DNA from: an uncultured Poribacteria bacterium
GTDB taxonomy: Bacteria > Poribacteria > WGA-4E > PCPOR2b
Direction of reading: 5' to 3'
Assembly (NCBI GenBank): GCA_958296125.1
Contig: OY282444.1
Coordinates: 3,815,623-3,879,622 of the forward strand
Length of the DNA stretch: 64,000 bases
In this document: one piece after another, positions 6,711-36,212 of the stretch
How the letters are laid out: each line of letters opens with the position of its first letter
Numbering within the stretch: the stretch's first letter is position 1
Translations under genes and position numbers: made by a program
The notes under the pieces: generated by a model
The model's database searches: none
Seen by the model: the letters and a program-made list of their open reading frames with translations, nothing else
Told to the model about the DNA's origin: nothing

Positions 6711-6751
6711 TAAGCCCCTCCGCTCTGAGTGTCAGCTAACGCTAGAAATCC

Positions 6752-6780
6752 TTGATTTTGTATGTAAGTTGGTTTAGAAT
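6752..6780 (+). promoter_or_regulatory. Sigma70-type promoter for the SMP-30 gene
   Basis: TTGATT at 6752-6757 and TAGAAT at 6775-6780 are separated by exactly 17 bases. They lie 65 bases before the start codon of the SMP-30 gene, in the only gap between it and the RseB-like gene. The -10 hexamer matches the consensus in five of six positions, the -35 in four. Confidence 0.5.
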
Positions 6781-6844
6781 TGCGTCTTGGAAAGCTATTA
6801 GTGTCTGAAACCGTGGACTACTAACACAGAGGAAGACAAGACTT

Positions 6845-18644: not shown

Positions 18645-18804
18645 TCAAAGCGATATGCCGTAACCCCAAGGGTTCATTCGTTCAAAAGCTCATTAGCGGG
18701 GCGACAGGTGGCAGCTTGCGTTATAATTCCCTTGTTGGGGCGGATTCCAACCTCTCCTCTGCATAAGGCGTGGGGTGCCCCTGATACAGGCAAGGACGAA
18801 ATCG

Positions 18805-19707
18805 ATGCAAAATCGAGAAGGGCAGCGTTATTTAGATCCCGCCGCATTGGCAAAGATTGGGAATCTCGAACTCATTGCGAAATTTGTCGTTGAAGGATTT
18901 ATCTCAGGGCTCCACAAAAGCCCCTATCACGGTTTCAGCGTCGAGTTCGCGCAGTATCGACAATATATGCCCGGCGATGATATTAAACATCTCGACTGGA
19001 AAGCCTATGGACGCACCAATCGGTATTACATCAAGCAGTTTGAGGAGGAAACGAACCTCAACTGCTGCCTCCTCCTCGACACCAGCGAGTCAATGACCTA
19101 CGGTTCCGGCGAACTAACGAAGTTGCAATACGCCAGCTACCTTATCGCGTCGATTGCATACTTCATGGCAAAGCAACGGGATGCCGTCGGATTCGCCTAT
19201 TTTGACGAAAGCCTCCACGAATACCTCCCCGCCCGCAGTTCTCTCGCCCATCTGCACGCAATCCTGCTGACGCTTGAACGAATCCAGACGAACAAACTCA
19301 CGCGTATGGGGCAACCCATCCACCAGATCGCCGAACGCCTCACCAAACGTGGATTGGTTATCCTGATTTCTGACCTCTACGAGGACGACCCCGACACGGT
19401 TGTGAAAGCCCTTGAACACCTCCGCTATGATGGACATGAGGTGATTGTTTTTCATATTTTAGACCATCAGGAGTTAGAATTTGCGTTTGATCGGGTGGCG
19501 CGTTTTGTTGATGCCGAAACGGATGAGGAGGTCATCGCAACGCCGCAGGCAATTCGTCAAAGCTACCTCAACCATCTGCACGATTTCATCAATCATTACA
19601 AGTTGGCACTGAGCAGATCCGACATCGACTATAACACGATTGACACCGCAACCCCTGTCAATTACGCGCTATCCTCTTACCTCGCCAAACGGGAGGGGTT
19701 GATTTGA
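18805..19707 (+). CDS. DUF58 domain protein
   Basis: About 300 residues. The DUF58 hallmark Tyr-Met-Pro-Gly-Asp-Asp-Ile-Lys-His-Leu-Asp-Trp-Lys-Ala-Tyr-Gly-Arg-Thr is near residue 57 and is followed by Leu-Leu-Leu-Asp-Thr-Ser-Glu-Ser-Met, a von Willebrand A-like metal site. DUF58 genes usually sit with MoxR ATPases and VWA proteins, often in envelope or stress functions; no MoxR is adjacent here. The frame is open 10 codons further upstream with a GTG, but AAGGACG lies 8 bases before ATG 18805. It follows the partner-switching genes, which may make it part of the same response. Confidence 0.85.
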   Translation: MQNREGQRYLDPAALAKIGNLELIAKFVVEGFISGLHKSPYHGFSVEFAQYRQYMPGDDIKHLDWKAYGRTNRYYIKQFEEETNLNCCLLLDTSESMTYGSGELTKLQYASYLIASIAYFMAKQRDAVGFAYFDESLHEYLPARSSLAHLHAILLTLERIQTNKLTRMGQPIHQIAERLTKRGLVILISDLYEDDPDTVVKALEHLRYDGHEVIVFHILDHQELEFAFDRVARFVDAETDEEVIATPQAIRQSYLNHLHDFINHYKLALSRSDIDYNTIDTATPVNYALSSYLAKREGLI

Positions 19708-19805
19708 TAAGTTTAGTTGCAACCTAAAACCCCTGTAAGGGAAAAAGAAACCGATGTTACTATGCGCGTTTTTTCATGATCCTAAATATTTGAAAGGTGG
19801 CACTA

Positions 19806-20365: not shown

Positions 20366-20407
20366 ATGCAAATCCAAGTTGCATAAACTGCTCAAATGGT
20401 GCATAAT
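20366..20407 (+). promoter_or_regulatory. Promoter with overlapping inverted repeat upstream of the cassette
   Basis: TTGCAT at 20379-20384 and CATAAT at 20402-20407 are 17 bases apart and lie 66 bases before the PAPS-reductase-like gene. The -35 hexamer is also the right arm of an inverted repeat, ATGCAA (20366-20371) and TTGCAT with a 7-base spacer, which could be an operator. It is the only promoter-like site I see before the eight-gene cassette. Confidence 0.45.
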
Positions 20408-20473
20408 AAATGGATCGACTCCACCAACAGAACAGTAGGGGGACACATCCTAAAAAGAAAATAGGGGAATACC

Positions 20474-21292
20474 ATGGGACAAAAAATACGCCATATCCTT
20501 GGCCTTTCCGGTGGCAAAGATAGTTCAGCACTCGCGATTTACATGCGGGACAAAGTGCCGGGGATGGAATACGCCTTCTGCGATACCGGAAAGGAATTGC
20601 CGGAGACGTATGAATTTCTCGATCGGTTGGAAGCCTTTTTAGGGAAAAAAATTGAACGCTTAAACGCCGAGCGCGAGTTTGACCATTGGCTTTCGGTGTT
20701 CAGAGGCTTGCTACCGTCAGCGCAGGTGCGTTGGTGTACACGCCTGTTGAAAATTAAACCTTTCGAGGAATTTGTCGGTGAGGATAAGGCTTACAACTAC
20801 ATCGCGATCCGCGCCGATGAGGACCGCATCGGTTATAAACCCCTGAAGAATGTTGATGCACGAAATATTGAACCCAAATATCCGTTCAAAGAGGGCGGCA
20901 TCACCGAGAGAGATGTCTATCGGATTTTGGAGGAGAGCGGTCTCGGCTTACCGGAGTATTACAAATGGCGCACGCGCTCCGGGTGCTACTTCTGTTTCTA
21001 CCAACGCAAAGCAGAGTGGATTGGGTTGAAGAGGAATCACCCTGACCTCTTTGCACTCGCCAAGGATTACGAGAAGTTTAATAAAGAGACAGGCGAGAGG
21101 TATACTTGGGGCCAAGGCGAGAGTTTAGAAGAACTGTCCGATCCTGAGCGGGAACGACAGATTGAAGAAAATTATGCGAAGGCGATGGCACGGGAAAAGG
21201 AAACCCAACCGGATCGTCCGTTGGTCGAAATTTTCGGCGATGTCCTTGATGATGAGGATGATGAGGAGCCGTGTTTGATTTGTGATTTGTGA
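20474..21292 (+). CDS. PAPS-reductase-family protein, DndC-like
   Basis: A 272-residue adenine-nucleotide alpha hydrolase. The PP-loop Ser-Gly-Gly-Lys-Asp-Ser-Ser at residues 12-18 is intact. Cys88, Cys171, Cys174 and the C-terminal pair Cys267/Cys270 are candidate iron-sulfur ligands. DndC and SspD-type members adenylate DNA or a sulfur carrier during phosphorothioate insertion; BrxP of BREX type 4 and true PAPS reductases share the fold. The gene lies in a run with DUF4007, two DGQHR proteins and a large ATPase, which favours DNA modification over sulfate assimilation. No cysteine desulfurase is adjacent. Its acidic tail ends Pro-Cys-Leu-Ile-Cys-Asp-Leu. Confidence 0.85.
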   Translation: MGQKIRHILGLSGGKDSSALAIYMRDKVPGMEYAFCDTGKELPETYEFLDRLEAFLGKKIERLNAEREFDHWLSVFRGLLPSAQVRWCTRLLKIKPFEEFVGEDKAYNYIAIRADEDRIGYKPLKNVDARNIEPKYPFKEGGITERDVYRILEESGLGLPEYYKWRTRSGCYFCFYQRKAEWIGLKRNHPDLFALAKDYEKFNKETGERYTWGQGESLEELSDPERERQIEENYAKAMAREKETQPDRPLVEIFGDVLDDEDDEEPCLICDL

Positions 21293-21367
21293 TGATTGTG
21301 TACCTTGTGGCAAATCAAGCCGAAGGTTTGCCAATTAGTCATATACTGAGTGAGTTTTCAGCCAAGT

Positions 21368-22015
21368 ATGATGCGATACACCATGAGAATTGATGAGTTT
21401 CAAGGAAGTAATATAATTGACACCCCGGAACTTCCTGGTATTTATGCGTGGTATTATCGCCCACGTGTGTTCGGAGACCATGAAGCTAAAATACTAGGTA
21501 GATTGATAACGAGACCCTCTAGTGTAAAAACTGAAATCGCTATGCGGTATGGATTAATGTGGGAAGTTGATTCGAGTGTCAATGTGTTACATGGTGGAAA
21601 ACGAAACCGTCAACCGGCCGATAAAGTTGTTTCGGATGCGGTGGTTGATAAAAGCGATTTAATCACACCTTTTCTTCAAAATTTGATGGTTCCTTACTTT
21701 GCAACACCCCTCTATATTGGAATTGACGGGAAGAACTTACGTGTAAGAATTAAGAGACACTATGATTCACTTACTCAACTCTGGGAACCAGAGGAACCAA
21801 TAAGTAAATATCTTGGAAACCATCCTGATGCAGATGTGGAAGAGGTGTTGAATCAGTTTGGATTAACTCATTCTTTTGCCATCAACGCCAGGGTAAAGGG
21901 GATAGCCCCAAGAGATCTAGTGGTCTGTGTCTGTCCCATTGAGATTCCGGGGAATTTGAGAGACTTAGAGCAAATTCTTCAGATTCTAGCAGATCCGATT
22001 TGTGGGAGGGAATAA
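21368..22015 (+). CDS. GIY-YIG-like nuclease domain protein with long insert
   Basis: About 215 residues. Pro-Gly-Ile-Tyr-Ala-Trp-Tyr-Tyr (GIY, near residue 24) and Leu-Tyr-Ile-Gly-Ile-Asp (YIG, near 116) followed by Leu-Arg-Val-Arg-Ile-Lys-Arg-His are the GIY-YIG motifs. About 90 residues separate the two motifs, where typical members have about 10-15, so an inserted region interrupts the nuclease fold. The catalytic Glu is not certain; candidates lie in the final 25 residues. Several in-frame starts exist (GTG 21350, ATG 21368, 21371 and 21383), none with a strong Shine-Dalgarno sequence. The sequence is visibly richer in A and T than flanking metabolic genes. Confidence 0.6.
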   Translation: MMRYTMRIDEFQGSNIIDTPELPGIYAWYYRPRVFGDHEAKILGRLITRPSSVKTEIAMRYGLMWEVDSSVNVLHGGKRNRQPADKVVSDAVVDKSDLITPFLQNLMVPYFATPLYIGIDGKNLRVRIKRHYDSLTQLWEPEEPISKYLGNHPDADVEEVLNQFGLTHSFAINARVKGIAPRDLVVCVCPIEIPGNLRDLEQILQILADPICGRE

Positions 22016-22019
22016 AGTA

Positions 22020-24338
22020 ATGTCAACAATGTTCCGTGTACAAAAAACGCCAATTTATGGGTTATCTGGCGAATTTACTGTTGGAGATGGCGCAAATACT
22101 ATTCGCGCAAAATACATTCTGACTAAAATTAAGCCTGGCGATGATGGGTCGTGGGAATGTGAGTTGGCATCCCAAATGAAGCCTTGGCGCGAGGTCTTTA
22201 ATGTTGAAGAGTTGACTTTCGATGAGTTATTACAGCGTGATCTGGACGATTCACGAGTTGCTCACGAGCTCATCCCCTATTTGCTTGGAAAATCAGGAAG
22301 TAGGGCAAAATTCTTCCCGCCAATTCTAGCGGTAATTGTTCCTCGTAAGCAGGGAAAGACGGGGATTGAAGGGTTTTATCCAATACCGAACGTCCAGAAT
22401 GAATTGACCGAGGAATACGGAGATCTATTTAGTTTCGAGCAGATTACATTGCAAGACAGCCCTACTCCAGTGGCAAGCCTAAGTTATAACAGGCAACGTT
22501 CTGCTTTCATAATTGTTGACGGACAACACCGTGCAATGGCAGTAATAGCTCTGCATCGCCAACTGAACGACAATTGGGGCGACAACGCCTTTGCATCTTA
22601 TTATAACCATATTCCGGTAACTCCCGAACAAGTTAAAAACATTGAATTACCGACGTGCATTATATATTTTCCTGATTTACACGAAGGCAATTCGGCGTTA
22701 CAGGAACAGGATATCAATTTAACTTCTGTCTGTCGGGAGATTTTTCTCGTCGTAAATCAGAGTGCTAAGCTTGTTAGTAAAGCTCGGGAACTCTTACTCG
22801 ACGACTCGGATATCGCTGCGCGCCTTATGCGTAGAACCCTTTCTACTTTAAAGAATCGAGGCGAAGATCAGGTAGGATTAGCCCGAATTTATACAATTTC
22901 TTATGGGGATTCGGACACAGAAGTTGGCCAAAAAGAAGTTATTTCAGGGCAGCTTGAATATAGCAGTGCGATTGCGCTGCACAAAGTCCACAGTGCACTC
23001 TCTTTTGGCGTTGAAGGAGCATTTAAGTTACGTGATGATGATGATATTCCACGTTATTCTGATATTTCAGATGGTCGCAGGACAAGAAATAGCAACCGGC
23101 CGGCCGAGATCTTGCTTGGGACGAATGCTGAAAAACATTCGATTTTGCCTCGTTATTCCGGAAAATCGCTCCCGCCGGACGAATTGGACGAAGTAGTTGA
23201 AAAACTCGGCACCTTGGCAGACAAGACATTGATGGGACTTTTCGACCAATTTCGCCCTTTTAAGGTTCACAATAGCGAACTACTAAAATTGAAAACGAAG
23301 CTTTTAGACCCGGATGCCCGATCTCAGATTGAACAGAAGAAAGCTTACACTCTGATTTTCGAGGGACGCGGGGTTCGGAATGTTTTTGAATCACATTTTG
23401 AGCGGTTGAAAGATGAAAGGGATGAGCATGAGGGACAAACAGTCCCCGGCCATCTACAAAGTCAGATTGAATTCTGTGAATCTGTCACGAGGACGTTGGG
23501 TAATCACGAACGCGAATTCCAACGTCTTCGGGCCTGTAGATTCTTCAGTATAAACCCAAAATTTTTTGATAATGATGATAATCAGGATGATCAAACAGTG
23601 CTGCTTCAAAAAGCCCGGGCACTCTTCCAAACTTTAGCAACCCAGGCTTTTCAACTCGGTTACACCATGGCGATTTTTACGGTTGTCGAAGAGTTGAAGC
23701 GTGAGAGATCAACTACATCTTCTTTCCCGTATCAGGACAGACTGAAACTTGTCGAATTTGTGACAGAGGTTTATCTCACCGCCCTCAACACATACTTTTC
23801 TCCAAATGAAGCTACACTTCATGGAACCCTGACTGGCTACATACGTGAACATAGGACATCGGTTTTTGACGCAAACTTCCCGGGGCTTCGGGGGCTCTTG
23901 GCAATGAGTGTCAATGAATTAAATGAACGACAATGGAGGTTCTTCCGCTATGCCGTTTTAGAGATTGTTCACTCGCAGTTTTGCTGGGAGACTTCCCAAC
24001 AAAAAATGAAACAGATGGACAATGAATGGGCACTAGAGTGGTACAAGGAAGCTATCCCTAGGCTCGTAGATGGAATAATCTCAGAACGTGAAAAGTATGT
24101 TGAGGATGCCGTTGAAGCGGCTGTAAAAGGGCGCGAATTTGAGTTGCTGAGAATGCAAACGGAATCTGAAGCGAGGGGTGCTGAAAAAAGTGAAGAACAA
24201 ATCAGGCAGATTGTTGATGAACTTAAAGTTACTCGTAAGAAAGAGACAATGGAAAACGCGCATCGCCATCTAAAGGCCAGCTTGAAAATTGTTGAAAAAA
24301 AAGAAGATATGGTCAAACGTTTAAGCAGCGGGCTATAG
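22020..24338 (+). CDS. DGQHR-domain protein (DndB-like), large form
   Basis: A 772-residue protein. Ile-Ile-Val-Asp-Gly-Gln-His-Arg-Ala-Met-Ala near residue 165 is the DGQHR motif of DndB, the protein that represses and negatively regulates phosphorothioation in Dnd systems. The remaining 500 residues form a helical region ending in a charged coiled coil (Lys-Glu-Thr-Met-Glu-Asn and on to Lys-Lys-Glu-Asp-Met-Val). It is much longer than typical DndB proteins of about 350 residues. GGAGG about 11 bases before ATG 22020 supports this start, 4 bases after the preceding stop codon. It is the first of two DGQHR genes in the cassette. Confidence 0.8.
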   Translation: MSTMFRVQKTPIYGLSGEFTVGDGANTIRAKYILTKIKPGDDGSWECELASQMKPWREVFNVEELTFDELLQRDLDDSRVAHELIPYLLGKSGSRAKFFPPILAVIVPRKQGKTGIEGFYPIPNVQNELTEEYGDLFSFEQITLQDSPTPVASLSYNRQRSAFIIVDGQHRAMAVIALHRQLNDNWGDNAFASYYNHIPVTPEQVKNIELPTCIIYFPDLHEGNSALQEQDINLTSVCREIFLVVNQSAKLVSKARELLLDDSDIAARLMRRTLSTLKNRGEDQVGLARIYTISYGDSDTEVGQKEVISGQLEYSSAIALHKVHSALSFGVEGAFKLRDDDDIPRYSDISDGRRTRNSNRPAEILLGTNAEKHSILPRYSGKSLPPDELDEVVEKLGTLADKTLMGLFDQFRPFKVHNSELLKLKTKLLDPDARSQIEQKKAYTLIFEGRGVRNVFESHFERLKDERDEHEGQTVPGHLQSQIEFCESVTRTLGNHEREFQRLRACRFFSINPKFFDNDDNQDDQTVLLQKARALFQTLATQAFQLGYTMAIFTVVEELKRERSTTSSFPYQDRLKLVEFVTEVYLTALNTYFSPNEATLHGTLTGYIREHRTSVFDANFPGLRGLLAMSVNELNERQWRFFRYAVLEIVHSQFCWETSQQKMKQMDNEWALEWYKEAIPRLVDGIISEREKYVEDAVEAAVKGREFELLRMQTESEARGAEKSEEQIRQIVDELKVTRKKETMENAHRHLKASLKIVEKKEDMVKRLSSGL

Positions 24339-24350
24339 GAGGTTTGATCT

Positions 24351-26807
24351 ATGAGACTGAGCATGGAGCAGCTTTTTAAAGAACTATACTTTGCCCCGAC
24401 CGAAGATGACATTGATAAAATAATCAACAATCATTCCGATATTTTCAAACAAGAAAATTGGTGTCCCCTCGGGGGTAACGAAAACAATTTCGGTGTGATA
24501 GAAAACCAACAGTCAAGTCCCATTGCCGCACTAATAGAGAAGATCACAAATTCAATTGATGCGGTTTTAATAAAGAAATGCCAGGAAGCAGGCATTAACC
24601 CTAAATCTGGACAAGCCCCCAAATCCATGGAAGAAGCCAAGGTAAAATTTTTCACCAATCACGGAGATTGGGATTTACCCGGCAGAAGAAAAGAACAATC
24701 AGAAAGCATCCAAATAATCGCCGATGGACCAAAGTTGAAAACTTCTCTGATTATTTATGACGATGGTGAGGGGCAACATCCTGACGACTTCAAGAACACT
24801 TTCCTGTCACTGCTGTACGGCAACAAGAATGAAATCCACTTTGTACAAGGCAAATACAATATGGGCGGAAGCGGTGCTATCGTATTTTGCGGTAAAAAGC
24901 GTTACCAGTTAATCGGCTCAAAGAAATATGACAACACAAGTAAGTTCGGCTTCACGTTAATCAGGGAACACCCACTGAGCAAAGAAGAAGAAAAGATCAA
25001 AAAGAGTACGTGGTATGAATACTTAAAGGTGAATGGAGAAATTCCAGCTTTTCACTCCGATCGACAGCATTTGGGATTACATAACAGGGATTTTAAGACA
25101 GGCACGATTATCAAACTATACTCGTATGATTTGCCAGCAGGGATCCGTTCTGTTATTTCTAGAGATTTGAATCGAAGCATCAATGAATATCTGTTTGACC
25201 CTGTTTTACCTGTGATTACGGTTGATAAAAAAGAACGATATCCTCGTGACCGCGCCCTAGAAAGGGCTTTATATGGGTTAAAACGGAGATTAGAACAGGA
25301 TGACAGTAGGTATGTCGAAACATATTTCTCTGACGATTTTTATAACGCATCCTTTGGAGAAATGAAAGCAACTTGCTATGTCTTCAAAACGAAAATGGAT
25401 GATCGATCTGTAAAAGAAACCAAGGAGACAATCCGTAGCGAATTTTTTAAAAATAATATGTCTGTATTGTTTTCAGTCAATGGACAGGTACATGGGCACT
25501 ATACATCTGAATTCATAACCCGTTCTCTGAAATTGAACCTACTCAAAGAACATCTCCTCATTCATGTTGATTGTACGAATATGAACTACAACTTCCGTAA
25601 AGAGTTGTTTATGGCTTCCCGAGACCGATTAAAAGATGGCAAAGAAACAAGGGATTTGAGACAATTTCTGGCTGAGAAACTTGGGGATAAAAATGGCCGC
25701 TTGGTTGAAATTCAGAAACGTCGGAAAGAGTCCATAGCAGTAGGAAATGGAGATGCCAAAGAGTTACTAAAATCCTTGACACAGAATCTACCAATGGATA
25801 GCGACTTGATGAAGTTGTTATCCCAAACCCTAAAATTAGATCAACAAACTAACGGTAGCCCCCCAAAAAAGAAGCGTCCAAAGTCAAAGAAAAAACAAAA
25901 TGACACGCAACCCTTTAACCCTCAAAGATTTCCATCGCGCTTTAAGAGACGTGTGAAGGGTTCTGCTGAAAAAGCGGTGGCAATACCGATTGATGGGGAA
26001 AAAACAGTTTATTTCGATACAGACGTAGAAGACCACTATTTTGACCGTATTGAAGATCCGGGGGAATTGAAAATTGCCCTTCTTGATTTCAAAACGAATG
26101 AAACGCAAGGCGGCAATGCGCCAGGACAGGTCGACCAAATTGAAGATGTACTCGATATACAGAAAAGTAGCCCACAAAAGGGCACAATCAAGATTCATTT
26201 AAGTCCGAAAGAAGCCGCACATCTCGGCGATGCAGCGAGGATTAAAGCAAGCCTGAGTGACCCAAGTGGAGAATTTGAGCCGGAAATCTTCTGGGTGAAG
26301 ATAAGTGATCCTAAAGCTCCTAAGCTACCTGCAAAGAAAACAGAAGAAGCGGAAATCCCGAATTTAGGTTTACCTGAATTGGTATTAACTCATCAAGAAC
26401 AAAAGGACAAAAAGGACAATACCGTAACCTGGGAGAAAGTCGAAGTTGCGACATCTGAAACAATAGACCATTCCACCGTAATGTATCCCATGATTGATGG
26501 CGAAAAGTTAGAGAAAATCTATATCAATATGGACAGCACCGTATTCATGAATTTCAAACCTAAAAATCCAAATGAGGAACAGTTGGAGTTAGCTCAACGA
26601 AAATACATCGCCTCGGTGTATTTCCACACGCTGTTTCTCTACACTATCACGAAAAATCGCAAATACAAGTTCAGACAGGAAGAGGACACCGGCGATTCCG
26701 ATGTCGAACTAGACGATTATCTTAAAGATTTATTTGCAAGCCATTACGCAGAATTTATCCTGAACTTCGGAACAGCAGATGGAGTTATACAGTTACTAGA
26801 AGATTAA
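24351..26807 (+). CDS. GHKL-type ATPase (MutL/Hsp90/MORC-like fold), 818 residues
   Basis: The N-terminal 180 residues carry the Bergerat ATP-binding motifs: Glu63-x3-Asn67-x2-Asp70 (N box), Asp-Asp-Gly-Glu-Gly near 137-141 (G1) and Asn-Met-Gly-Gly-Ser-Gly-Ala near 170-176 (G2). The lack of His-kinase motifs separates it from sensor kinases. A Lys-rich linker at about residues 504-530 joins a C-terminal region without recognisable domain. GHKL ATPases act as ATP-driven clamps, as in MutL, gyrase B, Hsp90 and MORC. Its position between DGQHR and GIY-YIG genes suggests DNA binding or remodelling in a defence context. AGGAGG precedes the start by about 9 bases. Confidence 0.75.
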   Translation: MRLSMEQLFKELYFAPTEDDIDKIINNHSDIFKQENWCPLGGNENNFGVIENQQSSPIAALIEKITNSIDAVLIKKCQEAGINPKSGQAPKSMEEAKVKFFTNHGDWDLPGRRKEQSESIQIIADGPKLKTSLIIYDDGEGQHPDDFKNTFLSLLYGNKNEIHFVQGKYNMGGSGAIVFCGKKRYQLIGSKKYDNTSKFGFTLIREHPLSKEEEKIKKSTWYEYLKVNGEIPAFHSDRQHLGLHNRDFKTGTIIKLYSYDLPAGIRSVISRDLNRSINEYLFDPVLPVITVDKKERYPRDRALERALYGLKRRLEQDDSRYVETYFSDDFYNASFGEMKATCYVFKTKMDDRSVKETKETIRSEFFKNNMSVLFSVNGQVHGHYTSEFITRSLKLNLLKEHLLIHVDCTNMNYNFRKELFMASRDRLKDGKETRDLRQFLAEKLGDKNGRLVEIQKRRKESIAVGNGDAKELLKSLTQNLPMDSDLMKLLSQTLKLDQQTNGSPPKKKRPKSKKKQNDTQPFNPQRFPSRFKRRVKGSAEKAVAIPIDGEKTVYFDTDVEDHYFDRIEDPGELKIALLDFKTNETQGGNAPGQVDQIEDVLDIQKSSPQKGTIKIHLSPKEAAHLGDAARIKASLSDPSGEFEPEIFWVKISDPKAPKLPAKKTEEAEIPNLGLPELVLTHQEQKDKKDNTVTWEKVEVATSETIDHSTVMYPMIDGEKLEKIYINMDSTVFMNFKPKNPNEEQLELAQRKYIASVYFHTLFLYTITKNRKYKFRQEEDTGDSDVELDDYLKDLFASHYAEFILNFGTADGVIQLLED

Positions 26808-26831
26808 CCTTCTCAACGCCAAAGAAATCAA

Positions 26832-27314
26832 ATGTCAGTTGTCGATCTAATTGATGAACAAGATCAGCTAAAAGCGCATCAGTATAAATTTTCCCTCTGG
26901 CCCCGAGCATGGGCGGCGTATAATCTCCCAGATCCGTTCAAGTGGGAAATTTATCCCTTTCAACAAGATCAGATTGATAACATCCCAAGTCAACCGGGGA
27001 TTTATAGTTTTGTGATTCAACCGGGGATTGCATCACATTCTAACTGTTCATATCTGGTGTATATTGGTCGAACAGAGCGCACCCTTCGAGTCCGCTTCAG
27101 GGAATACTTGCGCGAGCAGAACAAGAGGGAAGGTCGTCCAAAAATCGTGAGATTACTGAACAAATACCAAGACTATCTTTATTTCTGTTGTTCAGTAATT
27201 GCGGAAACAGAACGGATTACGGAAATTGAGGAGGCACTTATCAATGCGTTTCTGCCACCCTGTAATGACCAATTCTCCGCGGAAATGAGTCGCGTTATAG
27301 GAGCGTTCCGATGA
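26832..27314 (+). CDS. GIY-YIG nuclease family protein
   Basis: A 160-residue protein with an N-terminal extension of about 50 residues and a compact GIY-YIG domain: Gln-Pro-Gly-Ile-Tyr-Ser-Phe at 54-60, Leu-Val-Tyr-Ile-Gly-Arg at 75-80, Thr-Leu-Arg-Val-Arg-Phe-Arg-Glu at 84-91, and the catalytic-Glu region Glu-Ile-Glu-Glu-Ala-Leu-Ile-Asn at 131-138 followed by Pro-Pro-Cys-Asn. All features of an active family member are visible. The stop codon overlaps the start of the next gene by 4 bases (ATGA), so the two are translationally coupled. Confidence 0.8.
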   Translation: MSVVDLIDEQDQLKAHQYKFSLWPRAWAAYNLPDPFKWEIYPFQQDQIDNIPSQPGIYSFVIQPGIASHSNCSYLVYIGRTERTLRVRFREYLREQNKREGRPKIVRLLNKYQDYLYFCCSVIAETERITEIEEALINAFLPPCNDQFSAEMSRVIGAFR

Positions 27315-28573
27315 AAAAAACAGATGAACTCATCATTCCAGCCCTCAGAGCGCACATGGGCGATTGGATCTATTATGTGACATTCCTACGGATGGATCAA
27401 ATCGCGGATCAGATTCAGATCGCTCAGGAAATTCACTCAAGTAACGTGCTCAAGGATATGATTCAGCGTGAGATTACTAACAGAGCCGGTCAAATAGCTG
27501 ACTATCTGTTAAAACAGCCGCAGCGATTCTTCAATTCCCTTATCGTCGGGGTTTATGGCGGTTCGCCCAACTGGTATGAATTGGCGATTGGCACAAATCC
27601 CCGTTTTGATGCCCCTGTTCTCCCGCAGGAGTTGAAGGGTGTACTCGGAGTTCTCCGGCTTGACGGAACGCAAACCCTCTTTGCGATTGACGGGCAGCAT
27701 CGCGTCCAAGGAATTAAGCAGGCACTCGAGAAAGACGATGAATTGAGACGGGAAGAGGTGAGCGTTATCTTTGTTGCACATCGGAATGATTCGGACGGAA
27801 TGGAACGGACGCGTCGCCTTTTTACAACATTGAATTGGTATGCTAAGCCGGTCAGTAAAAGTGAAATCGTCGCGCTTGACGAAGACGACATCCTCGCAAT
27901 CACGACGCGGGAATTGGTTGAAAAACATTCACTTTTTCAAGAGAAAATTTCACTGGCAAAAACGAAAGCGGTTGCAGTCAAAGATAACAGGAGTTTTACA
28001 ACGATTATAACCCTCTATGATGTTTTGGAAATCCTATTTCGCAAGCAGGGAAGGGGTTGGAAAGAATTTAAGCGATACCGCCCGGCGGATGGTGATATCT
28101 CTAATTTTTACGTTAAAAGCGCGCAATTTTGGGACACGATGGCTGAGCATTTCCCACCGTTAGCGGAGGTTCTAACGAGCCAACCGGGTGAAAATGTTGC
28201 TGGCCGTTATCGTCATAGAGAAGGGGGGCATTTGATTTTCAGACCTGTTGGGCTTCTGATTATTGCTCACGTTGTCAGGCAAGCGAAAGATTCAGGGTTG
28301 ACCGAAAGAGAAGCGATTAAACGGATTTCCGAAATTTCAATGGAGCTGACAGATGAACCGTGGGTGGGCTTACTGTGGGACAAAACCAATCAACGAATGA
28401 TTAGCGCACCGCCTAACCAAAAAGTAGCGAAGCAACTCCTTTTCTACAAGATCGGCGGCAATACGGATGAGATGAAAACAAACGAAGAGAAGCTCCGACA
28501 GGAGTATGCTGGGTTACTCAACAAGGACAAATCCGAAGTGACCTTAACCCGAGTCCACGCCTCTCTTCCCTAA
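27311..28573 (+). CDS. DGQHR-domain protein (DndB-like), standard size
   Basis: A 420-residue protein with Leu-Phe-Ala-Ile-Asp-Gly-Gln-His-Arg-Val-Gln-Gly-Ile at about 123-135, the DndB/DGQHR signature, and a following Phe-Thr-Thr-Leu-Asn segment typical of the family. DndB binds DNA and controls phosphorothioate gene expression in known Dnd systems. It is a paralogue of the larger DGQHR protein at 22020. The start codon overlaps the upstream stop, which ties it to the GIY-YIG gene. The Asp-Gly-Gln-His-Arg residues are intact. Confidence 0.85.
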   Translation: MKKTDELIIPALRAHMGDWIYYVTFLRMDQIADQIQIAQEIHSSNVLKDMIQREITNRAGQIADYLLKQPQRFFNSLIVGVYGGSPNWYELAIGTNPRFDAPVLPQELKGVLGVLRLDGTQTLFAIDGQHRVQGIKQALEKDDELRREEVSVIFVAHRNDSDGMERTRRLFTTLNWYAKPVSKSEIVALDEDDILAITTRELVEKHSLFQEKISLAKTKAVAVKDNRSFTTIITLYDVLEILFRKQGRGWKEFKRYRPADGDISNFYVKSAQFWDTMAEHFPPLAEVLTSQPGENVAGRYRHREGGHLIFRPVGLLIIAHVVRQAKDSGLTEREAIKRISEISMELTDEPWVGLLWDKTNQRMISAPPNQKVAKQLLFYKIGGNTDEMKTNEEKLRQEYAGLLNKDKSEVTLTRVHASLP

Positions 28574-28657
28574 AAAATCGTCCCATGCTTCAAAGCCGGT
28601 GACCAGCAGATGGAATTCTACAATTACTTAGAGAAATCTAATGTCAAAGGAAACTAG

Positions 28658-29605
28658 TTGAGCGCACTGTTCTCAACCCTCCCAGATAAAATCAATGCCT
28701 CCTTCTCAAGGCATGAAACTTTCCCTTTTCGCTATACGTGGTTGAAGAAGGGGGTTGATGCGGTGAGAGACAGGTCAACCATTTTTGCCGATGATAGTGC
28801 GACAATCACCTTAGGCGTTGGGAAGAATATGGTGCGTTCGATTCACCATTGGTGTCAGGCCACTCAACTCATTGAAGGTGACATGATGGGGTCCAATCAT
28901 CGCAGGCGGTTTGTTCCGACTAAACTTGGCGATAAAATCTTCGCCGATGACGGGTTCGATCCGTATCTTGAGGATGCGGCGACACTGTGGTTCATCCATT
29001 GGCGGCTTGCAACAAACGCTAACCGGGCAACTACATGGTTTTGGGCGTTCAGCGTCTTCGGTCAAAATGAGTTTAGCAAGGACAAATTTATCTCTGAACT
29101 GATCGATTGGAGTCAGAAAAACACGCGGAATCGAATCTCAGAAAATTCGATTAGACGGGATGTCGATTGTTTTTTCCGGACGTATGTCCCCTCTCGCCTG
29201 ACAAAAACTACCATTATGGAAGATACCTTCGATTGTCCGCTTGTCGAATTGGACTTGATCTCTGATTCACCCGACGGAAACACCTACCGATTCCGTCGCG
29301 GTCCGAAAGCTCCGCTCCCAGCTGAGATATTCGCCGCCGCCTTTTTTGAGTTTTGGGATACCTGCTTTTCAGAAAACAGTGCACTCACATTTGCAAACAT
29401 CGCTTATTGGGAAAAAAGCCCGGGTCGAATTTTTCAGTTGGATGAGGATGCCCTTGTTGAATATCTTGAGGGGCTCGAAAGTCTCACGGATGGTGCGTTG
29501 CGCTACGATGAAACGGCGGGAATGAAACAGGTTTACCGATACCGAAAAATTGACCCGATGGAGCTGCTCCATAAATATTACCGAAGTAACTTGCTTGTGT
29601 GTTAA
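28658..29605 (+). CDS. DUF4007 family protein
   Basis: A 315-residue protein starting with TTG, preceded by AAAGGA at a spacing of about 8. The N-terminus has Phe-Ser-Arg-His-Glu-Thr-Phe-Pro-Phe-Arg-Tyr-Thr-Trp-Leu-Lys-Lys-Gly, the recognisable opening of DUF4007. This family is usually found next to PAPS-reductase/DndC-like genes; its function is unknown and a DNA-binding role is possible. A Cys-containing segment (Phe-Asp-Cys-Pro, Asp-Thr-Cys-Phe) occurs later. Its presence is one of the best signs that the cassette concerns DNA modification. The ATPase starts 67 bases downstream. Confidence 0.82.
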   Translation: MSALFSTLPDKINASFSRHETFPFRYTWLKKGVDAVRDRSTIFADDSATITLGVGKNMVRSIHHWCQATQLIEGDMMGSNHRRRFVPTKLGDKIFADDGFDPYLEDAATLWFIHWRLATNANRATTWFWAFSVFGQNEFSKDKFISELIDWSQKNTRNRISENSIRRDVDCFFRTYVPSRLTKTTIMEDTFDCPLVELDLISDSPDGNTYRFRRGPKAPLPAEIFAAAFFEFWDTCFSENSALTFANIAYWEKSPGRIFQLDEDALVEYLEGLESLTDGALRYDETAGMKQVYRYRKIDPMELLHKYYRSNLLVC

Positions 29606-29672
29606 TCCGAAAATAATTTCAATGCCGTGAAGATGGAGACCCATCAATATAGACTCAGACCAAAAAGTATCC

Positions 29673-32600
29673 ATGAACACAACCATTCCACTTTCCGAAC
29701 TCTTCCATGTTACCAGCCGCTTTCATCGCTCGGTCCATCTTGAACGCGATTTTTATGGGGAGAACGCACTAGATGGGTATGTCCTAACGATCACGGCGCG
29801 GGAAACATTACGACGCGTGATTGCGGCCCTTGAAAATGAATTGACATCGAAAGCATGGTCTCTCACCGGTCCCTACGGTTCAGGAAAATCGGCGTTTGCA
29901 CTCTTTACTGGGAAGTTGCTAGGTGCCTCCGAATCGCCGACAACGCAGGGGGCTTTGAATCTGCTTAAATGCGGAGATGAATCCTTATGGCATCAATTCA
30001 GCCGCTTGGATCTGCACAAGGGGAGAGGGTTTTGTCCTGTGCTTATCTCTGGAGAACGCTCATCGATTACGCTGGCTCTACTGCGCGGATTGGAGCGTGG
30101 TCTCACCGCTTTTAGCGATTCGTCGGTGGGTAGTCGTGCTATTCATCGTGCGTCTTTCCGTCCATTTCTCTTAGACATCCAAAAACGGTTAGATGCAGCG
30201 GAAAATGGGATCCTGCCCCATGCCTCCGAAATCACGGATCTTTTTGAATCCGCGACATGCCAGATTGGGGTAGAAGGTGGGATCGGACTGTTATTGGTCG
30301 TCGATGAACTCGGAAAATTCCTTGAATACGCCGCACAAAATCCGGCAGACGGCGATCTGTTTGTGCTACAGAGTCTCGCCGAATTTGCTGCTAGAAGCGA
30401 AAAAACGCCTTTATTGATGCTGACAATTCTCCATCAAGCCTTTGAGCAGTACGCGCAACGGTTGGCAACATCCCAACGTGAGGAGTGGGCGAAGGTGCAG
30501 GGGCGTTTTGAGGATGTCGCCTTTGTGGAACCGACCGAGCAGGTGCTCCGCCTGATTGGGAACGCGATTGAGAGTCACTCGGCAGTTGAAAAGCGTCCGT
30601 TCCGAAACAAGGCAAACCTCTCTGTTGCGGTTGAGCTAGCCCTTAAACCACGCCAACTTGATACCAGCGAATTTATGTTGCTACTTGAAAACTGTTTGCC
30701 CCTCCACCCAACGGTCGCCCTAATTGTCAGTTCACTTTTCCGTCGATTCGCTCAAAACGAGCGCTCTCTTTTCGTCTTACTTAACTCCAGTGAACCGCAC
30801 GGACTCCAAGATTTTCTCTCTAACCAGTTCTACGATGGGCGCGTCCTGCCAACATTCAGGCTGTCCAATCTTTACGATTATATCCATACCGCTTTGGGCA
30901 GTAGTCTGTATACATCAAGGGACGGGTCGAAGTGGACGGAAATTGAGTCCGCAGTTGAGCGGTTATCAGACCCGTCTCCGATGACAGTGAAACTGATTAA
31001 AACCATCGGCCTGCTCGGTATTGTCGGAGAAGGAAGTGTAAATCTGAAGGCCTCAAAGGCTTTACTCCGCTACGCACTTGACGGTGGCATGGAGACAGCC
31101 CAGAACGAAGTTGATGAGCGAGTCGAATCGTTTGAGGCTGCCTTGGCGATGTTGGAGCAGCGTTCTATCGCTATTTACCGACGTTACAACGATGCCTACG
31201 CCCTATGGGAGGGAAGCGATATCGACATTGACGAAAAGCTCCGCGAGGCAAGGACGCACCGTGCCCCGAATCTGCGCTTGCCAGCTGCCCTCTCGACGCT
31301 GATGCAACAGCGCCCCCTGATTGCCCGCCGGCACCTCTTTGTAACCGGCACGTTGCGACACTTCGCGGTCCGATACACCGACCTCGAAGGATTTGATGCA
31401 GATCTACAAACGCCATCTGATGGTGCGGATGGACTTGTGCTTTATACCCTGCCTGCAAGCGAACTTGAGGCAGAACAGCTTGTTAAAAAGGCAACCGAGG
31501 CATCAGTCGCGGATCGAGCAGAGGTCCTCATAGCAATTCCCCAACCAATCGACTTTTTGCACGAAGCTGTGGTTGAACTTTGGTGTTTGGATTGGGTGGA
31601 GGAAAACACCCCCGAGCTCGCTGGCGATGCGACGGCACGTCGTGAACTTCGGGCGCGGCGCGCTGCAGCCGAACAAGAGGTATCCGAGCGATTGACTGCC
31701 CTTTTTGGTGTGAACATAGCTTCCCCGCAAGTGGGGGTCGGTCCTACGCCTAGTGGTAAGAGCACCGCCGGGGGCTGCTCATGGTATCATAACGGACAAT
31801 CGAAACAAATTGCCTCAAGAAGAGAGCTTAATGCGTATCTTTCCGAAATCTGCGACGCTGTTTATCACGCAACGCCAATCCTTCGTAATGAACTGATTAA
31901 TCGGAGACAAATCTCCTCGCAGGCGGCCTCCGCGCGGCGGAAACTCATCGGAGCGATGCTTGATTCCCAACAACAGGAGAATTTGGGTATCAGCGGCTAT
32001 CCGCCTGAAATGAGCATTTACCTCTCCCTACTATTCGATCCTGGGATACACCGTTGTGTGTCGGGGGTTTGGAGGTTTCATCCGCCGGAGGCCGATCATA
32101 AAACCCAAATCTACGCGATTTGGCTAGAGATTGAAAAATTTCTTAGCGAATGCGAGGAGAAGCGTCAATCCGTTGCCGAACTCTATAAACGATTGGAGCA
32201 GCCGCCTTTTGGATTGAGAAGCGGTCCGATGCCCATCCTTTTGTGCGCGGTTTTGCTGCATTACGAAGCGGAAACCGCGCTGTATGAAGATGGTTCCTTT
32301 GTCGCGGACCTCTCAATGCCGGTTTTTGAGCGGTTGATTCGGTCTCCTGAGAAATTTGGAATCAAGCGTTTCCGGATGGAAGGTATCCGATCAGAGGTGT
32401 TTGAGCAGTTTACAGGGATGATTTCTAAACCGGTGTCAACGATGGGGGAGGGGCCAAACCTGCTAGTAATTGTCAGACCGCTCATGCGTTTTATCGACAA
32501 ACTGCCCCGTTATACGATGCTCACGCAGGATTTAGGCAGCACAGCAATCGCCTTGCGTAAAGCTATCACCGATGCCCGAGAACCGGATGCCCTTCTTTTT

Positions 32601-33308
32601 GAACAGTTGCCTCAAGCTCTCGGTTTTGATGTTTTCGGTCCATCAGCGGAGACAGATTCAAAAACGGTTGATGCGTTTTTTAACAGCTTGCGAAGTTCAC
32701 TATCCGAGTTAAACCGAGCCTATGATGACCTGCTTGCTTTCATTGAACAGATGCTTGTTTCCGCGTTCTCTTTGCAATCGAATGGTAATCCGCTCCACAC
32801 GCAACTGATAAAGAGAGTATCCCCCCTGTTTGACTTAACCATTGAGCCGAAACTCAAAGGCTTTTTCATCCGAGTCTGTGACGAAGGACTTGATTTCAAG
32901 GGATGGCTTGAGGCAGTTGGGACATATATAGCCAACAAACCCCCGGCATCGTGGAACGACTCAGATAAAGCCCATTTTGAAATGAACCTTTCCGAGCTGG
33001 CGAGAAAGTTCCAGCATTTTGAAGCGGTGTCATTTGAGCGACAAAGGCAATCTGAAAAATCGGTTGACAACGCAGGCGAGGTGATTCGGGTTGGTATTAC
33101 CACGCTCTCTTCACCGGAGCAGGAACGGGTTATTACCGTGCCGCCAACCGCCGAGGCGCAAGCTGACAAAATCGAACGCAAAATCGAGCAAGTGTTTGAG
33201 GGCTTTGGTGTAGATGGGAATATCAACCTTCGCCTCGCTGTCTTGGCACGACTGTCACAGAAATTGATGGAACAACTTGAGGACTCAGCGAATGAGGGAA
33301 AAGGCTGA
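29673..33308 (+). CDS. Large P-loop ATPase of the defence-associated type, 1211 residues
   Basis: Walker A is Gly-Pro-Tyr-Gly-Ser-Gly-Lys-Ser at residues 66-73 and Walker B is Leu-Leu-Leu-Val-Val-Asp-Glu-Leu-Gly-Lys at 206-215, followed by Phe-Glu-Gln-Tyr-Ala and an Arg-finger-like Trp-Ala-Lys-Val-Gln-Gly-Arg-Phe near 270-280. The rest is a long helical region without a recognised domain. Length and layout are like BrxC/PglY of BREX and the ATPases beside PAPS-reductase/DUF4007 genes, but the N-terminus differs from BrxC as I know it. It is probably the motor or switch of the cassette. A 735-base antisense frame over its 3' end is a shadow. Confidence 0.8.
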   Translation: MNTTIPLSELFHVTSRFHRSVHLERDFYGENALDGYVLTITARETLRRVIAALENELTSKAWSLTGPYGSGKSAFALFTGKLLGASESPTTQGALNLLKCGDESLWHQFSRLDLHKGRGFCPVLISGERSSITLALLRGLERGLTAFSDSSVGSRAIHRASFRPFLLDIQKRLDAAENGILPHASEITDLFESATCQIGVEGGIGLLLVVDELGKFLEYAAQNPADGDLFVLQSLAEFAARSEKTPLLMLTILHQAFEQYAQRLATSQREEWAKVQGRFEDVAFVEPTEQVLRLIGNAIESHSAVEKRPFRNKANLSVAVELALKPRQLDTSEFMLLLENCLPLHPTVALIVSSLFRRFAQNERSLFVLLNSSEPHGLQDFLSNQFYDGRVLPTFRLSNLYDYIHTALGSSLYTSRDGSKWTEIESAVERLSDPSPMTVKLIKTIGLLGIVGEGSVNLKASKALLRYALDGGMETAQNEVDERVESFEAALAMLEQRSIAIYRRYNDAYALWEGSDIDIDEKLREARTHRAPNLRLPAALSTLMQQRPLIARRHLFVTGTLRHFAVRYTDLEGFDADLQTPSDGADGLVLYTLPASELEAEQLVKKATEASVADRAEVLIAIPQPIDFLHEAVVELWCLDWVEENTPELAGDATARRELRARRAAAEQEVSERLTALFGVNIASPQVGVGPTPSGKSTAGGCSWYHNGQSKQIASRRELNAYLSEICDAVYHATPILRNELINRRQISSQAASARRKLIGAMLDSQQQENLGISGYPPEMSIYLSLLFDPGIHRCVSGVWRFHPPEADHKTQIYAIWLEIEKFLSECEEKRQSVAELYKRLEQPPFGLRSGPMPILLCAVLLHYEAETALYEDGSFVADLSMPVFERLIRSPEKFGIKRFRMEGIRSEVFEQFTGMISKPVSTMGEGPNLLVIVRPLMRFIDKLPRYTMLTQDLGSTAIALRKAITDAREPDALLFEQLPQALGFDVFGPSAETDSKTVDAFFNSLRSSLSELNRAYDDLLAFIEQMLVSAFSLQSNGNPLHTQLIKRVSPLFDLTIEPKLKGFFIRVCDEGLDFKGWLEAVGTYIANKPPASWNDSDKAHFEMNLSELARKFQHFEAVSFERQRQSEKSVDNAGEVIRVGITTLSSPEQERVITVPPTAEAQADKIERKIEQVFEGFGVDGNINLRLAVLARLSQKLMEQLEDSANEGKG

Positions 33309-33543: not shown

Positions 33544-33683
33544 GATAGCGGTGGCATCAAAATTGCTTGTGTTCGATGGACAGAGTGAATTTCGTTTGGC
33601 GACGATTCGCCGCAGATCCTATCTCGTTCTGTTGGAATGTCAACAGAACCTATTGGGCAACTCGCCCAAAATGGGAGGAAATT

Positions 33684-35009: not shown

Positions 35010-36212
35010 TTGCGAATCTTCTGTTGTGTTCTGTTCCTATTTTCGATGGATCAGGTCGCACCGGCTGAATCTAAACGGTTGAGTGTCTCTGGCTATGGTG
35101 TAATCAACTACGCCAACTTCGATTGGCAGACCGATCCGGAGCGACGCGCCCAGATTGACGTTGAACGGCTTGTCATCGCGCCGAAGTTTCAGATGAGTGA
35201 GGTAATTCGGCTTGAAGCGGAGCTTGAGTTTGAGCACGGTGGGACCGGCACCACAATGGAGTTTGACAAATTCGAGGAGTTTGGCGAATTCGAGATGGAG
35301 ATCGAAAAAGGCGGCGAGGTCATCGTTGAGAAGCTTGCCGCGGTCTTTGAGATTCGCCCCACGGTTAGTCTCCGAATTGGTCACATCATCGTGCCGATTG
35401 GCTTGACTGCCAAGCGGCATCGCCCCCAACACTACTTCACAACCACCCGCCCCGAATCTGAATCAAACCTGATTCCAACCATCTGGCACGAAAATGGGAT
35501 TGAGCTATTTGGCAAAGCCGGCGCGCTCAGCTATCAGGCGCAAATCGTCAACGGCTTGGACTCCACCGGCTTCAGTTCGCGCCGCTGGATTGTCGGCGGT
35601 CATCAACTGCGGTTTGAGACCGCCAATGCTGAAGATTTCGCGCTCGTCGGTCGCGTTGATTATAAGGTCATGGCTGGAACAGTCCTCGGTATCTCCGGCT
35701 ACTACGGAGACAGCGCGGACAACCGCCCCAAACCGGATTTGCAAGTTGACACCACCGTTTCAATCCTCAACCTACACGGTTTTTACGAAGTCGGCGCGTT
35801 AAAGGTGCGGGGGTTGTTTCTGTACGGAACACTCGAAAATTCAGACCTTATCTCTAAAGCCAATCGGAATCTTTCAAATAAGCTGAACGTAAAGCGGACC
35901 CCTGTTGGCAGCCGCGCCTTCGGGGGATACCTCGAAATCGGTTACAATCTGCTTGCGTTCTTCAAATCATCCTTGAATACTGAAGCAGCACTCGATCTGT
36001 TCGTCCGTTACGACAACTACGATACGATGGCTGAGGTTGAGGGGGATATCTTTGATAATCCGCGTTGGGAACGGCAGACGTGGACATTTGGTGTCAATTA
36101 TCATCTACATCCCCAGCTTGTCTTTAAGGGACATTACTCTGCACGGAGGTTGGGCACCGAAGTTGATAACGAAGAAAACACCTTCGCGCTCGGCTTCGGA
36201 TTCCAATACTAA
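35010..36212 (+). CDS. Outer-membrane porin, iron-regulated
   Basis: A 400-residue protein with a signal peptide (residues 1-20), many amphipathic beta-strand segments and a C-terminal Phe-Gln-Tyr aromatic end, as in Gram-negative barrels of the phosphate-selective-porin-like class. TTG at 35010 with CGAGGGA 6 bases upstream is the start. It is the first gene after the Fur-like control region, and the imelysin gene is 136 bases downstream, so a role in metal passage across the outer membrane is likely. The substrate is not readable from the sequence. Confidence 0.7.
   Translation: MRIFCCVLFLFSMDQVAPAESKRLSVSGYGVINYANFDWQTDPERRAQIDVERLVIAPKFQMSEVIRLEAELEFEHGGTGTTMEFDKFEEFGEFEMEIEKGGEVIVEKLAAVFEIRPTVSLRIGHIIVPIGLTAKRHRPQHYFTTTRPESESNLIPTIWHENGIELFGKAGALSYQAQIVNGLDSTGFSSRRWIVGGHQLRFETANAEDFALVGRVDYKVMAGTVLGISGYYGDSADNRPKPDLQVDTTVSILNLHGFYEVGALKVRGLFLYGTLENSDLISKANRNLSNKLNVKRTPVGSRAFGGYLEIGYNLLAFFKSSLNTEAALDLFVRYDNYDTMAEVEGDIFDNPRWERQTWTFGVNYHLHPQLVFKGHYSARRLGTEVDNEENTFALGFGFQY

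What the first reader, a model, noticed from the sequence alone, without database searches (positions are those of the whole stretch)
20366..33308. Eight-gene cassette: PAPS-reductase/DndC-like, GIY-YIG x2, DGQHR x2, GHKL ATPase, DUF4007 and large ATPase
All eight genes are on one strand with small gaps or overlaps, behind one promoter-like site. DndC-like, DGQHR and DUF4007 proteins are linked to DNA phosphorothioation; the large ATPase resembles defence motors; GIY-YIG proteins are nucleases. The combination matches no system that I know: it lacks DndA, DndD, DndE, SspB, PglZ and BrxL. My hypothesis is an undescribed DNA-modification or defence system in which the DndC-like enzyme marks DNA, DGQHR proteins regulate, and the ATPases and nucleases restrict. 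The genes look more A+T-rich than their neighbours, as expected for acquired DNA.
Basis: partly seen in the sequence, partly recalled or inferred. Interest (0 to 1): 0.9.

Follow-up and report, generated by a model that had tools for sequence, protein, structure and literature searches.

The report
Phosphorothioate system with swappable nuclease cassettes
A sponge-symbiont-type bacterium carries the known genes that put sulfur into its DNA backbone, and between them two previously unnamed sensor-plus-nuclease gene pairs that seem to be new interchangeable 'cutter' modules of this anti-virus system, a kind of missing partner that most such systems were known to lack.

Summary
The locus is therefore an Ssp system. 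It has no SspE, and no FtsK-like (SspH) gene.

The new part is what lies between SspD and SspB: two GIY-YIG nuclease/DGQHR-protein pairs (g2-g3, g5-g6) and a GHKL ATPase (g4). The g2-g3 pair recurs across about a dozen phyla: 48 of 58 g3 loci have g2 just upstream, 46 of 58 contain SspB/C/D. The two genes co-evolve tightly (r 0.95) but only loosely with the writer (r about 0.5). In a sister species with the same flanks, canonical SspE sits exactly where g2-g3 sits here. The modelled g2 fold is GIY-YIG; g3's N-terminal domain resembles ParB and, weakly, SspE. The g5-g6 pair occurs beside both Ssp and Dnd writers.

Best reading: g2-g3, and probably g5-g6, are two-gene PT-sensing restriction modules that work like SspE but are not SspE: a new variant of a known kind. 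About 84% of sspBCD loci had no known partner. Biochemistry is untested.

The parts
20474..21292 (+). g1 = sspD, PAPS-reductase-like sulfur transferase of the PT writer
   Evidence: PADLOC SspD 380 bits; PF01507 over cut-off; PP-loop S12-G13-G14-x-D16-S17 and C88, C171, C174, C267, C270 invariant in 11 SspD
21350..22015 (+). g2 = GIY-YIG nuclease, partner of g3 (true start probably ATG 21383)
   Evidence: AF2 model pLDDT 88.9; all ten VIA rows at Z 6.7-7.8, plus Hpy188I at 2.5, are GIY-YIG nucleases, best unrelated row 2.2; Y122, G124, R133, H137, E207 in 50 of 50 and G30, Y32 in 49 of 50 homologues
22002..24338 (+). g3 = long DGQHR protein (ParB/Srx-like N-terminal domain plus large helical C-terminal half); true start probably ATG 22020
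   Evidence: TIGR03187 3e-7, PF14072 2e-5, both below cut-off; Q78-R79, D173-G-Q-H-R177, F248, N252 invariant in 55 homologues; model pLDDT 86, ParB Z 6.0 and SspE Z 4.3-4.4
24351..26807 (+). g4 = GHKL (Bergerat-fold) ATPase, recurrent Ssp partner
   Evidence: HATPase_c_3 4.7e-5, 23.9 bits against cut-off 25; E63, N67, D70, D137, G139, G141 and GxYNMGGxG invariant in 13 homologues; beside sspBCD in Poribacteria and in Hymenobacter, Ensifer, Devosia plasmids
26832..27314 (+). g5 = second GIY-YIG nuclease, partner of g6
   Evidence: weak NCBIfam GIY-YIG-type matches; homologue L193:9061-9561 passes Pfam GIY-YIG cut-off; motif GIY...YIG...R...E...N in sequence
27311..28573 (+). g6 = DGQHR/DndB-family protein, overlaps g5 by 4 bases
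   Evidence: PF14072 114.5 bits over cut-off 29.1; TIGR03187 109.8 over cut-off 58.85; TIGR03233 DndB only 64.8 against 328; QR, DGQHR, FxxxN invariant in 10 homologues
28658..29605 (+). g7 = sspB (DUF4007), DNA-binding/nicking part of the PT writer
   Evidence: PF13182 306.5 bits; PADLOC SspB 332 bits
29673..33308 (+). g8 = sspC, ring-type AAA+ ATPase of the PT writer
   Evidence: PADLOC SspC 1099 bits, BrxC 675 bits; Walker A GPYGSGKS present
21293..24335 (+). segment exchanged for sspE in a same-genus genome (G018/L192) with the rest of the locus conserved
   Evidence: blastn: window 20431-21292 and 24336-28588 align to L192, the part between does not; sspE ORF (PADLOC 856 bits) lies there
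18775..19707 (+). conserved left flank (DUF58-type gene) of the variable site
   Evidence: present in all 6 genus genomes; empty site in G019, G020
35010..36212 (+). conserved right flank (porin-like gene) of the variable site
   Evidence: present in all 6 genus genomes

Best explanation
The locus is an Ssp-type phosphorothioate restriction-modification system. SspB, SspC and SspD, with a cysteine desulfurase encoded elsewhere in the genome, replace a non-bridging oxygen by sulfur at short motifs in host DNA (known for the family; inferred here). In place of SspE it carries two-gene effector modules. The DGQHR protein (g3, and g6 in the second pair) is a ParB/sulfiredoxin-type nucleotide-binding sensor; its GIY-YIG partner (g2; g5) is the DNA-cutting subunit. 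As in SspE and DndI, where a DGQQR NTPase domain reads PT and controls an HNH nickase, the DGQHR subunit is expected to read the PT state of DNA through NTP binding/hydrolysis and to license or release the GIY-YIG nuclease so that invading DNA without PT is nicked and self DNA is spared. The GHKL ATPase g4 is a further, separable accessory or effector module. Shown here: identities, fold of g2, motif conservation, linkage, co-evolution, same-site exchange with sspE. Inferred: PT chemistry, PT reading, nuclease activity, physical complex, phage protection, direction of PT control.
For: (1) Writer identity: SspD 380, SspB 332, SspC 1099 bits. (2) Linkage across phyla: of 58 g3 loci (5 plasmid, 53 from one genome scan), 46 contain SspB/C/D and 1 dndBCDE; 48 have g2 directly upstream; DUF4007 occurs in 0 of 14 control genomes. 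(3) Modularity: distance matrices g2-g3 r=0.95, SspB-SspC 0.95, SspC-SspD 0.93, but g3-SspB/C/D only 0.51-0.53. (4) Natural exchange: in G018 the same flanks, SspD, g4-g5-g6, SspB and SspC are kept and a full SspE (PADLOC 856 bits) replaces g2-g3; G022 has a divergent g2-g3 (27%) there; G019 and G020 are empty. (5) The slot after SspD in other Poribacteria holds SspE or Pbe-like genes, both experimentally known PT-linked restriction modules. (6) g2 model is GIY-YIG with invariant catalytic residues. (7) g3 N-terminal domain resembles ParB and SspE; QR, DGQHR and FxxxN motifs, shared with SspE-type DUF262 domains (PMC4619093), are invariant. (8) g5-g6-type pairs sit beside ssp writers (L154, L155, L161, L162, L049) and beside dndC/D/E (L051, L194, L195), as expected of a PT reader. 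(9) The genome has no SspE: its two other GmrSD_N proteins score 40-44 bits with an SspE profile that gives its own members about 1560 or more.
Against: No experiment. g3 and SspE profiles do not align by sequence (hhalign probability 0.5%), and the structural match to SspE is weak (Z 4.3-4.4; ParB 6.0), so shared PT reading is by analogy. Eleven of 58 g3 loci show neither writer nearby; several are short contigs, but L055/L198 (G027) has g2-g3 in a near-complete genome without DUF4007. The last GIY-YIG motif residue (Asn) is Glu in the window's g2 and variable in the family. Some loci carry g3-type plus SspE together (L059, L139), so it need not be an alternative to SspE. Loci were found by two conserved peptide patterns, and many are metagenome bins.
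Confidence: 0.62

Rival explanations
1. The GIY-YIG/DGQHR pairs are back-up suicide effectors: the nuclease is held in check by the DGQHR protein and kills the infected cell when the main restriction fails, rather than discriminating self from non-self DNA by PT.
For: The 2024 reappraisal of Dnd systems proposed this role for standalone URI (GIY-YIG) nucleases at the edges of Dnd loci and suggests DndB could degrade nucleotides (PMC10853773). Stacking of several effectors in one locus (window, L030, L041) fits a back-up.
Against: The pair lies inside the operon immediately after sspD, not at its edge, and is the only visible partner in many loci (L154, L155, L161, L162 and many of L061-L099); g2-g3 stands where SspE stands.
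Confidence: 0.18
2. The DGQHR proteins are DndB-like regulators of the writer and the GIY-YIG proteins are nickases that help PT insertion; there is no restriction part in g2-g3/g5-g6, and g4 or nothing restricts.
For: DndB, the best-known DGQHR protein, is a repressor of dnd genes (PMC8569181, PMC10853773); g6 is in the DndB Pfam family.
Against: SspABCD modifies DNA without them (PMC8092258); g6 is far below the DndB equivalog cut-off (64.8 against 328 bits); g2-g3 co-evolve with each other far more than with the writer; sspE replaces them.
Confidence: 0.12
3. The five inner genes are unrelated defence genes that merely accumulated in a defence hot spot next to sspBCD.
For: The site is a variable hot spot in the genus; a ThsB-type TIR gene sits in the same site in sister genomes.
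Against: Same pair, same order, directly behind sspD in unrelated phyla; 47 of 58 loci have a PT writer within about 10 kb.
Confidence: 0.06

Closest known systems
SspABCD-SspE (PT-sensing single-strand PT system)
   Same: Same writer genes SspB, SspC, SspD; effector is a DGQ-R NTPase-type sensor coupled to a nuclease; same position in the locus in a sister species
   Different: Sensor and nuclease are two genes; sensor is DGQHR/DndB-type, not DUF262; nuclease is GIY-YIG, not HNH (DUF1524); no sequence alignment between g3 and SspE
SspABCD-SspFGH
   Same: Same writer; alternative restriction partner
   Different: No FtsK-like SspH, no PADLOC match of that kind for the inner genes
IscS-DndBCDE-DndI
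   Same: PT writer with a DGQQR-type sensor plus nuclease partner
   Different: Dnd writer; DndI is a single DUF262-HNH protein
DndB / DGQHR family (PF14072, TIGR03187)
   Same: g6 and, weakly, g3 belong to this family with all three family motifs
   Different: Paired with a nuclease; below the DndB equivalog cut-off; g3 has a 450-residue helical extension
BREX type 4
   Same: BrxP (PAPS reductase + DUF4007) and BrxC are homologues of SspD, SspB, SspC
   Different: No PglZ or BrxL in the locus
URI (GIY-YIG) nucleases of Dnd neighbourhoods (PMC10853773)
   Same: GIY-YIG nucleases near a PT writer
   Different: There described as standalone genes at locus edges with Dnd; here regular pairs with DGQHR proteins inside Ssp operons

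Membership tests
SspBCD phosphorothioate writer | SspB (DUF4007), SspC (BrxC-like AAA+), SspD (PAPS-reductase-like) together | tested here: met
   PADLOC 332, 1099, 380 bits; order varies (D first, B-C last)
SspBCD phosphorothioate writer | cysteine desulfurase SspA, or an IscS substitute in the genome | tested here: met
   none in the cassette; two close cysteine desulfurases elsewhere, 440 and 422 bits with an SspA profile; substitution by IscS is known (PMC8092258)
SspBCD phosphorothioate writer | sulfur in the DNA backbone | not testable with these tools
   needs LC-MS/MS
SspE | DUF262 (DGQQR) plus DUF1524 HNH in one protein in the locus | tested here: not met
   no such protein in the window's locus; g3 and SspE profiles do not align
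SspFGH | three-gene module with an FtsK-like SspH | tested here: not met
   no PADLOC or Pfam match of that kind for g2-g6
Dnd system | DndC, DndD, DndE | tested here: not met
   g1 matches DndC only weakly (22.9 bits against 380 for SspD); no DndD/E among the eight genes
BREX type 4 | PglZ and BrxL beside BrxC and BrxP | tested here: not met
   none among the eight genes; the genome's two PglZ-domain genes lie at 0.25 and 3.51 Mb, the locus at 3.84 Mb
DGQHR/DndB family | Pfam/NCBIfam domain over cut-off, QR, DGQHR, FxxxN motifs | tested here: met
   g6: 114.5 and 109.8 bits over cut-offs; g3: motifs invariant but 24.3 bits against 29.1
DndB equivalog | TIGR03233 over cut-off | tested here: not met
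   g6: 64.8 against 328 bits
GIY-YIG nucleases | GIY-YIG fold with Tyr/Tyr/Arg/Glu active site | tested here: met
   g2: VIA rows 1-10 all GIY-YIG, Z 6.7-7.8, residues invariant; no Foldseek match at E<=0.001. g5: by homologue over Pfam cut-off
GHKL ATPases | Bergerat motifs; Pfam HATPase_c_3 | tested here: inconclusive
   g4: motifs invariant but 23.9 bits against cut-off 25; no structure predicted

The most novel reading that the evidence does not exclude
GIY-YIG/DGQHR pairs are a previously undescribed, widespread class of two-gene PT-sensing restriction modules that plug into both Ssp and Dnd writers and can be swapped for SspE, supplying part of the missing partners of 'orphan' sspBCD.
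Probability: 0.5. Interest if true: 0.72.

Novelty: new variant of a known kind. Interest (0 to 1): 0.6.

Why it matters
In the survey that defined SspFGH, 84% of 2,678 sspBCD loci had neither SspE nor SspFGH, and the authors asked whether unknown restriction partners exist (PMC8092258). This locus points to concrete candidates, found in many cultivable isolates, and makes that question testable. It also suggests a general design: a PT-reading ParB/Srx-type NTPase coupled, in one protein or two, to an exchangeable nuclease (HNH or GIY-YIG).

Tried and rejected
(b) BREX type 4, Dnd, Dpd: rejected by missing parts. (c) g2-g3 fusion as proof of contact: the long ORF in L069 is only an upstream extension, no fusion found. 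(d) Sequence alignment of g3 or g6 with SspE: no signal. (e) Foldseek on g2 and g3 gave no significant match; the GIY-YIG and ParB/SspE matches come from the VIA second look. For g3, absence of other folds proves nothing; the helical C-terminal half has no clear match. (f) PDB sequence searches with g2-g6 profiles: nothing significant. (g) Profile comparison of g2 with g5: only the GIY segment aligns. (h) g3 in phage records: no match. One g2-g3-type pair as DNA in E. coli genomes: no match. (i) Rfam: nothing. (j) Literature: no held paper joins GIY-YIG with SspB or DGQHR in this sense; subscription journals and preprints are not covered. (k) A first count of g2 neighbours (44 of 58) missed pairs whose ORF starts were over-extended; 48 follows from the g2 list.
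Full report
What is there. The window lies in a single-contig 5.16 Mb genome of the phylum Poribacteria: contigs of its held relatives carry that name in the public records (L053 and L087, with the lengths of G034:C221 and G074:C40). Eight co-oriented ORFs run from 20474 to 33308. Their key residues are kept: the PP-loop and cysteines of SspD, and Walker A of SspC. No SspA lies in the cassette, but two cysteine desulfurases score 440 and 422 bits with an SspA profile elsewhere in the genome; IscS substitution is known (PMC8092258). The remaining five genes have no PADLOC match, apart from g6, which matches DndB at 63 bits.

The five inner genes. g2 (21350-22015) and g5 (26832-27314) carry GIY-YIG motifs; g3 (22002-24338) and g6 (27311-28573) are DGQHR/DndB-family proteins; g4 is a GHKL ATPase. 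The g2/g3 ORFs overlap as called (14 bases; the likely ATG of g3 at 22020 would leave a 4-base gap), and g5/g6 overlap by 4 bases, so both pairs look translationally coupled. The two families of DGQHR proteins are related (hhalign 97.7%). All three motifs of the family (QR, DGQHR, FxxxN) are invariant in 55 g3 and 10 g6 homologues; these motifs are shared with the DUF262 domain of GmrSD/SspE (PMC4619093), and in SspE Q31 and the DGQQR motif are needed for PT response and GTP hydrolysis (PMC9646914).

Structures. A model of g2 from 45 homologues (pLDDT 88.9) gave no significant Foldseek match. In the VIA second look the first ten rows were all GIY-YIG endonucleases (R.Eco29kI Z 7.8, UvrC, T4 EndoII), with Hpy188I at 2.5 and the first unrelated chain at 2.2. 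The GIY-YIG Tyr, Tyr, Arg and Glu positions are invariant in 49-50 of 50 homologues; the terminal Asn is not. A model of g3 from 48 homologues (pLDDT 86.2) has an alpha/beta N-terminal domain and a long helical half. VIA ranks ParB first (Z 6.0, residues 39-255) and lists three SspE structures (Z 4.3-4.4, about 145 residues) and the GmrSD protein BrxU (3.2) among helical-bundle noise. These Z values are weak, and sequence profiles of g3 and SspE do not align, so 'like SspE' is an analogy within the ParB/Srx superfamily.

Distribution. Plasmid homologues of g3 lie in sspABCD loci of Geminocystis, Trichormus, Cyanobacterium and Asticcacaulis, and beside dndBCDE in Nonomuraea. A scan of 84,980 genomes returned 53 loci from about a dozen phyla. 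Counting plasmids, 46 of 58 loci contain SspB/C/D and one a Dnd writer; 48 have g2 directly upstream, usually in the order B-C-D-g2-g3. DUF4007 was found in none of 14 control genomes, so this is far above chance. In two Myxococcota loci a different nuclease-like ORF with an HNH signature precedes g3 (L097, L103). Distances between g2 and g3 correlate at 0.95, within the writer at 0.93-0.95, but between g3 and the writer at only 0.51-0.53: two tight units, loosely coupled.

The natural swap. Left (18775-19707) and right (35010-36212) flanks occur in all six genus genomes. Between them G019 and G020 have no ssp genes; G018 has SspD-SspE-g4-g5-g6-SspB-SspC; G022 has SspD, a divergent g2-g3, a DndB-type gene, SspB-SspC; G021 has a decayed version; the window has SspD-g2-g3-g4-g5-g6-SspB-SspC. 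The G018 SspE is canonical (PADLOC 856 bits) and lies exactly where g2-g3 lies here. The window's genome has no SspE of its own.

The slot in other Poribacteria. SspB occurs in 47 of 85 genomes. By hand count, of about 38 loci whose region after SspD is visible (window included), 19 hold a GIY-YIG/DGQHR pair of one of three kinds (in one, L148, the contig ends after g2) and 7 hold SspE; others hold Pbe-like genes (L144 confirmed), DUF262-HNH, GHKL or HNH genes. g5-g6 is the only visible partner in L154, L155, L161, L162. g5-g6-type pairs also sit beside dndC/D/E (L051; L194, L195; dndC only in L199), while L193 and L197 have the pair without a writer in view. g4 occurs in 12 of 85 Poribacteria, beside sspBCD wherever the contig is long enough, and with sspBCD on three plasmids; homologues under 30% identity stand alone.

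Interpretation. The parsimonious reading is a modular PT restriction-modification system: constant writer, exchangeable effectors. g2-g3 is the clearest: it replaces SspE, joins a ParB/Srx-type protein to a nuclease, and follows PT writers across phyla. g5-g6 probably does the same with both Ssp and Dnd marks. g4 is a separable GHKL module; which step it serves cannot be told from these data. PT chemistry, PT reading, cleavage and protection are inferred. Exceptions exist: g2-g3 in G027, without DUF4007, and loci with both SspE and g3 (L059, L139).

Known or new. The writer is known; SspE, SspFGH, DndI and Pbe are known partners. GIY-YIG (URI) genes were noted at the edges of Dnd loci as putative suicide effectors (PMC10853773). 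No held paper describes DGQHR/GIY-YIG pairs as Ssp partners, though the library excludes preprints and most subscription journals. I therefore call it a new variant of a known kind.

Noticed in passing
19797-20285: A 162-aa ORF of unknown family precedes the locus; in sister genomes its homologue sits directly beside another ORF that in L190 is a ThsB-type TIR gene and is missing here, so it may be the orphan half of a second defence pair.
   Followed up: partly
L045:14379-18933 (also L044, L068, L073, L076, L086): Downstream of g3 in cyanobacterial ssp loci lies a trio: SF2 helicase, GHKL ATPase, PLD-type protein, also seen behind g5-g6 in Roseobacter (L049); possibly a further PT-linked restriction module.
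   Followed up: partly
L144:11277-16302; also L146, L147, L157, L160: A PbeA-type helicase/PLD protein (PADLOC 656 bits in L144) with a DndD-like ATPase and a small ORF stands directly behind sspBCD, although Pbe was described with Dnd writers.
   Followed up: partly
L193:6688-7638, L195:6934-7887, L197, L199, L198:10626-11510, L168:11479-12372: HNH_2 proteins whose N-terminal part looks, from memory, like a sulfur-binding domain stand next to g5-g6, g2-g3 or SspD; Pfam names only the HNH.
   Followed up: partly
L097:about 3541-4541, L103:about 6437-7437: In two Myxococcota loci the ORF before g3 carries an HNH-like signature instead of GIY-YIG, as if the nuclease subunit had been exchanged.
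   Followed up: no
33567-34727: The leucine-rich-repeat gene next to the locus varies in copy number at this site among genus members.
   Followed up: no
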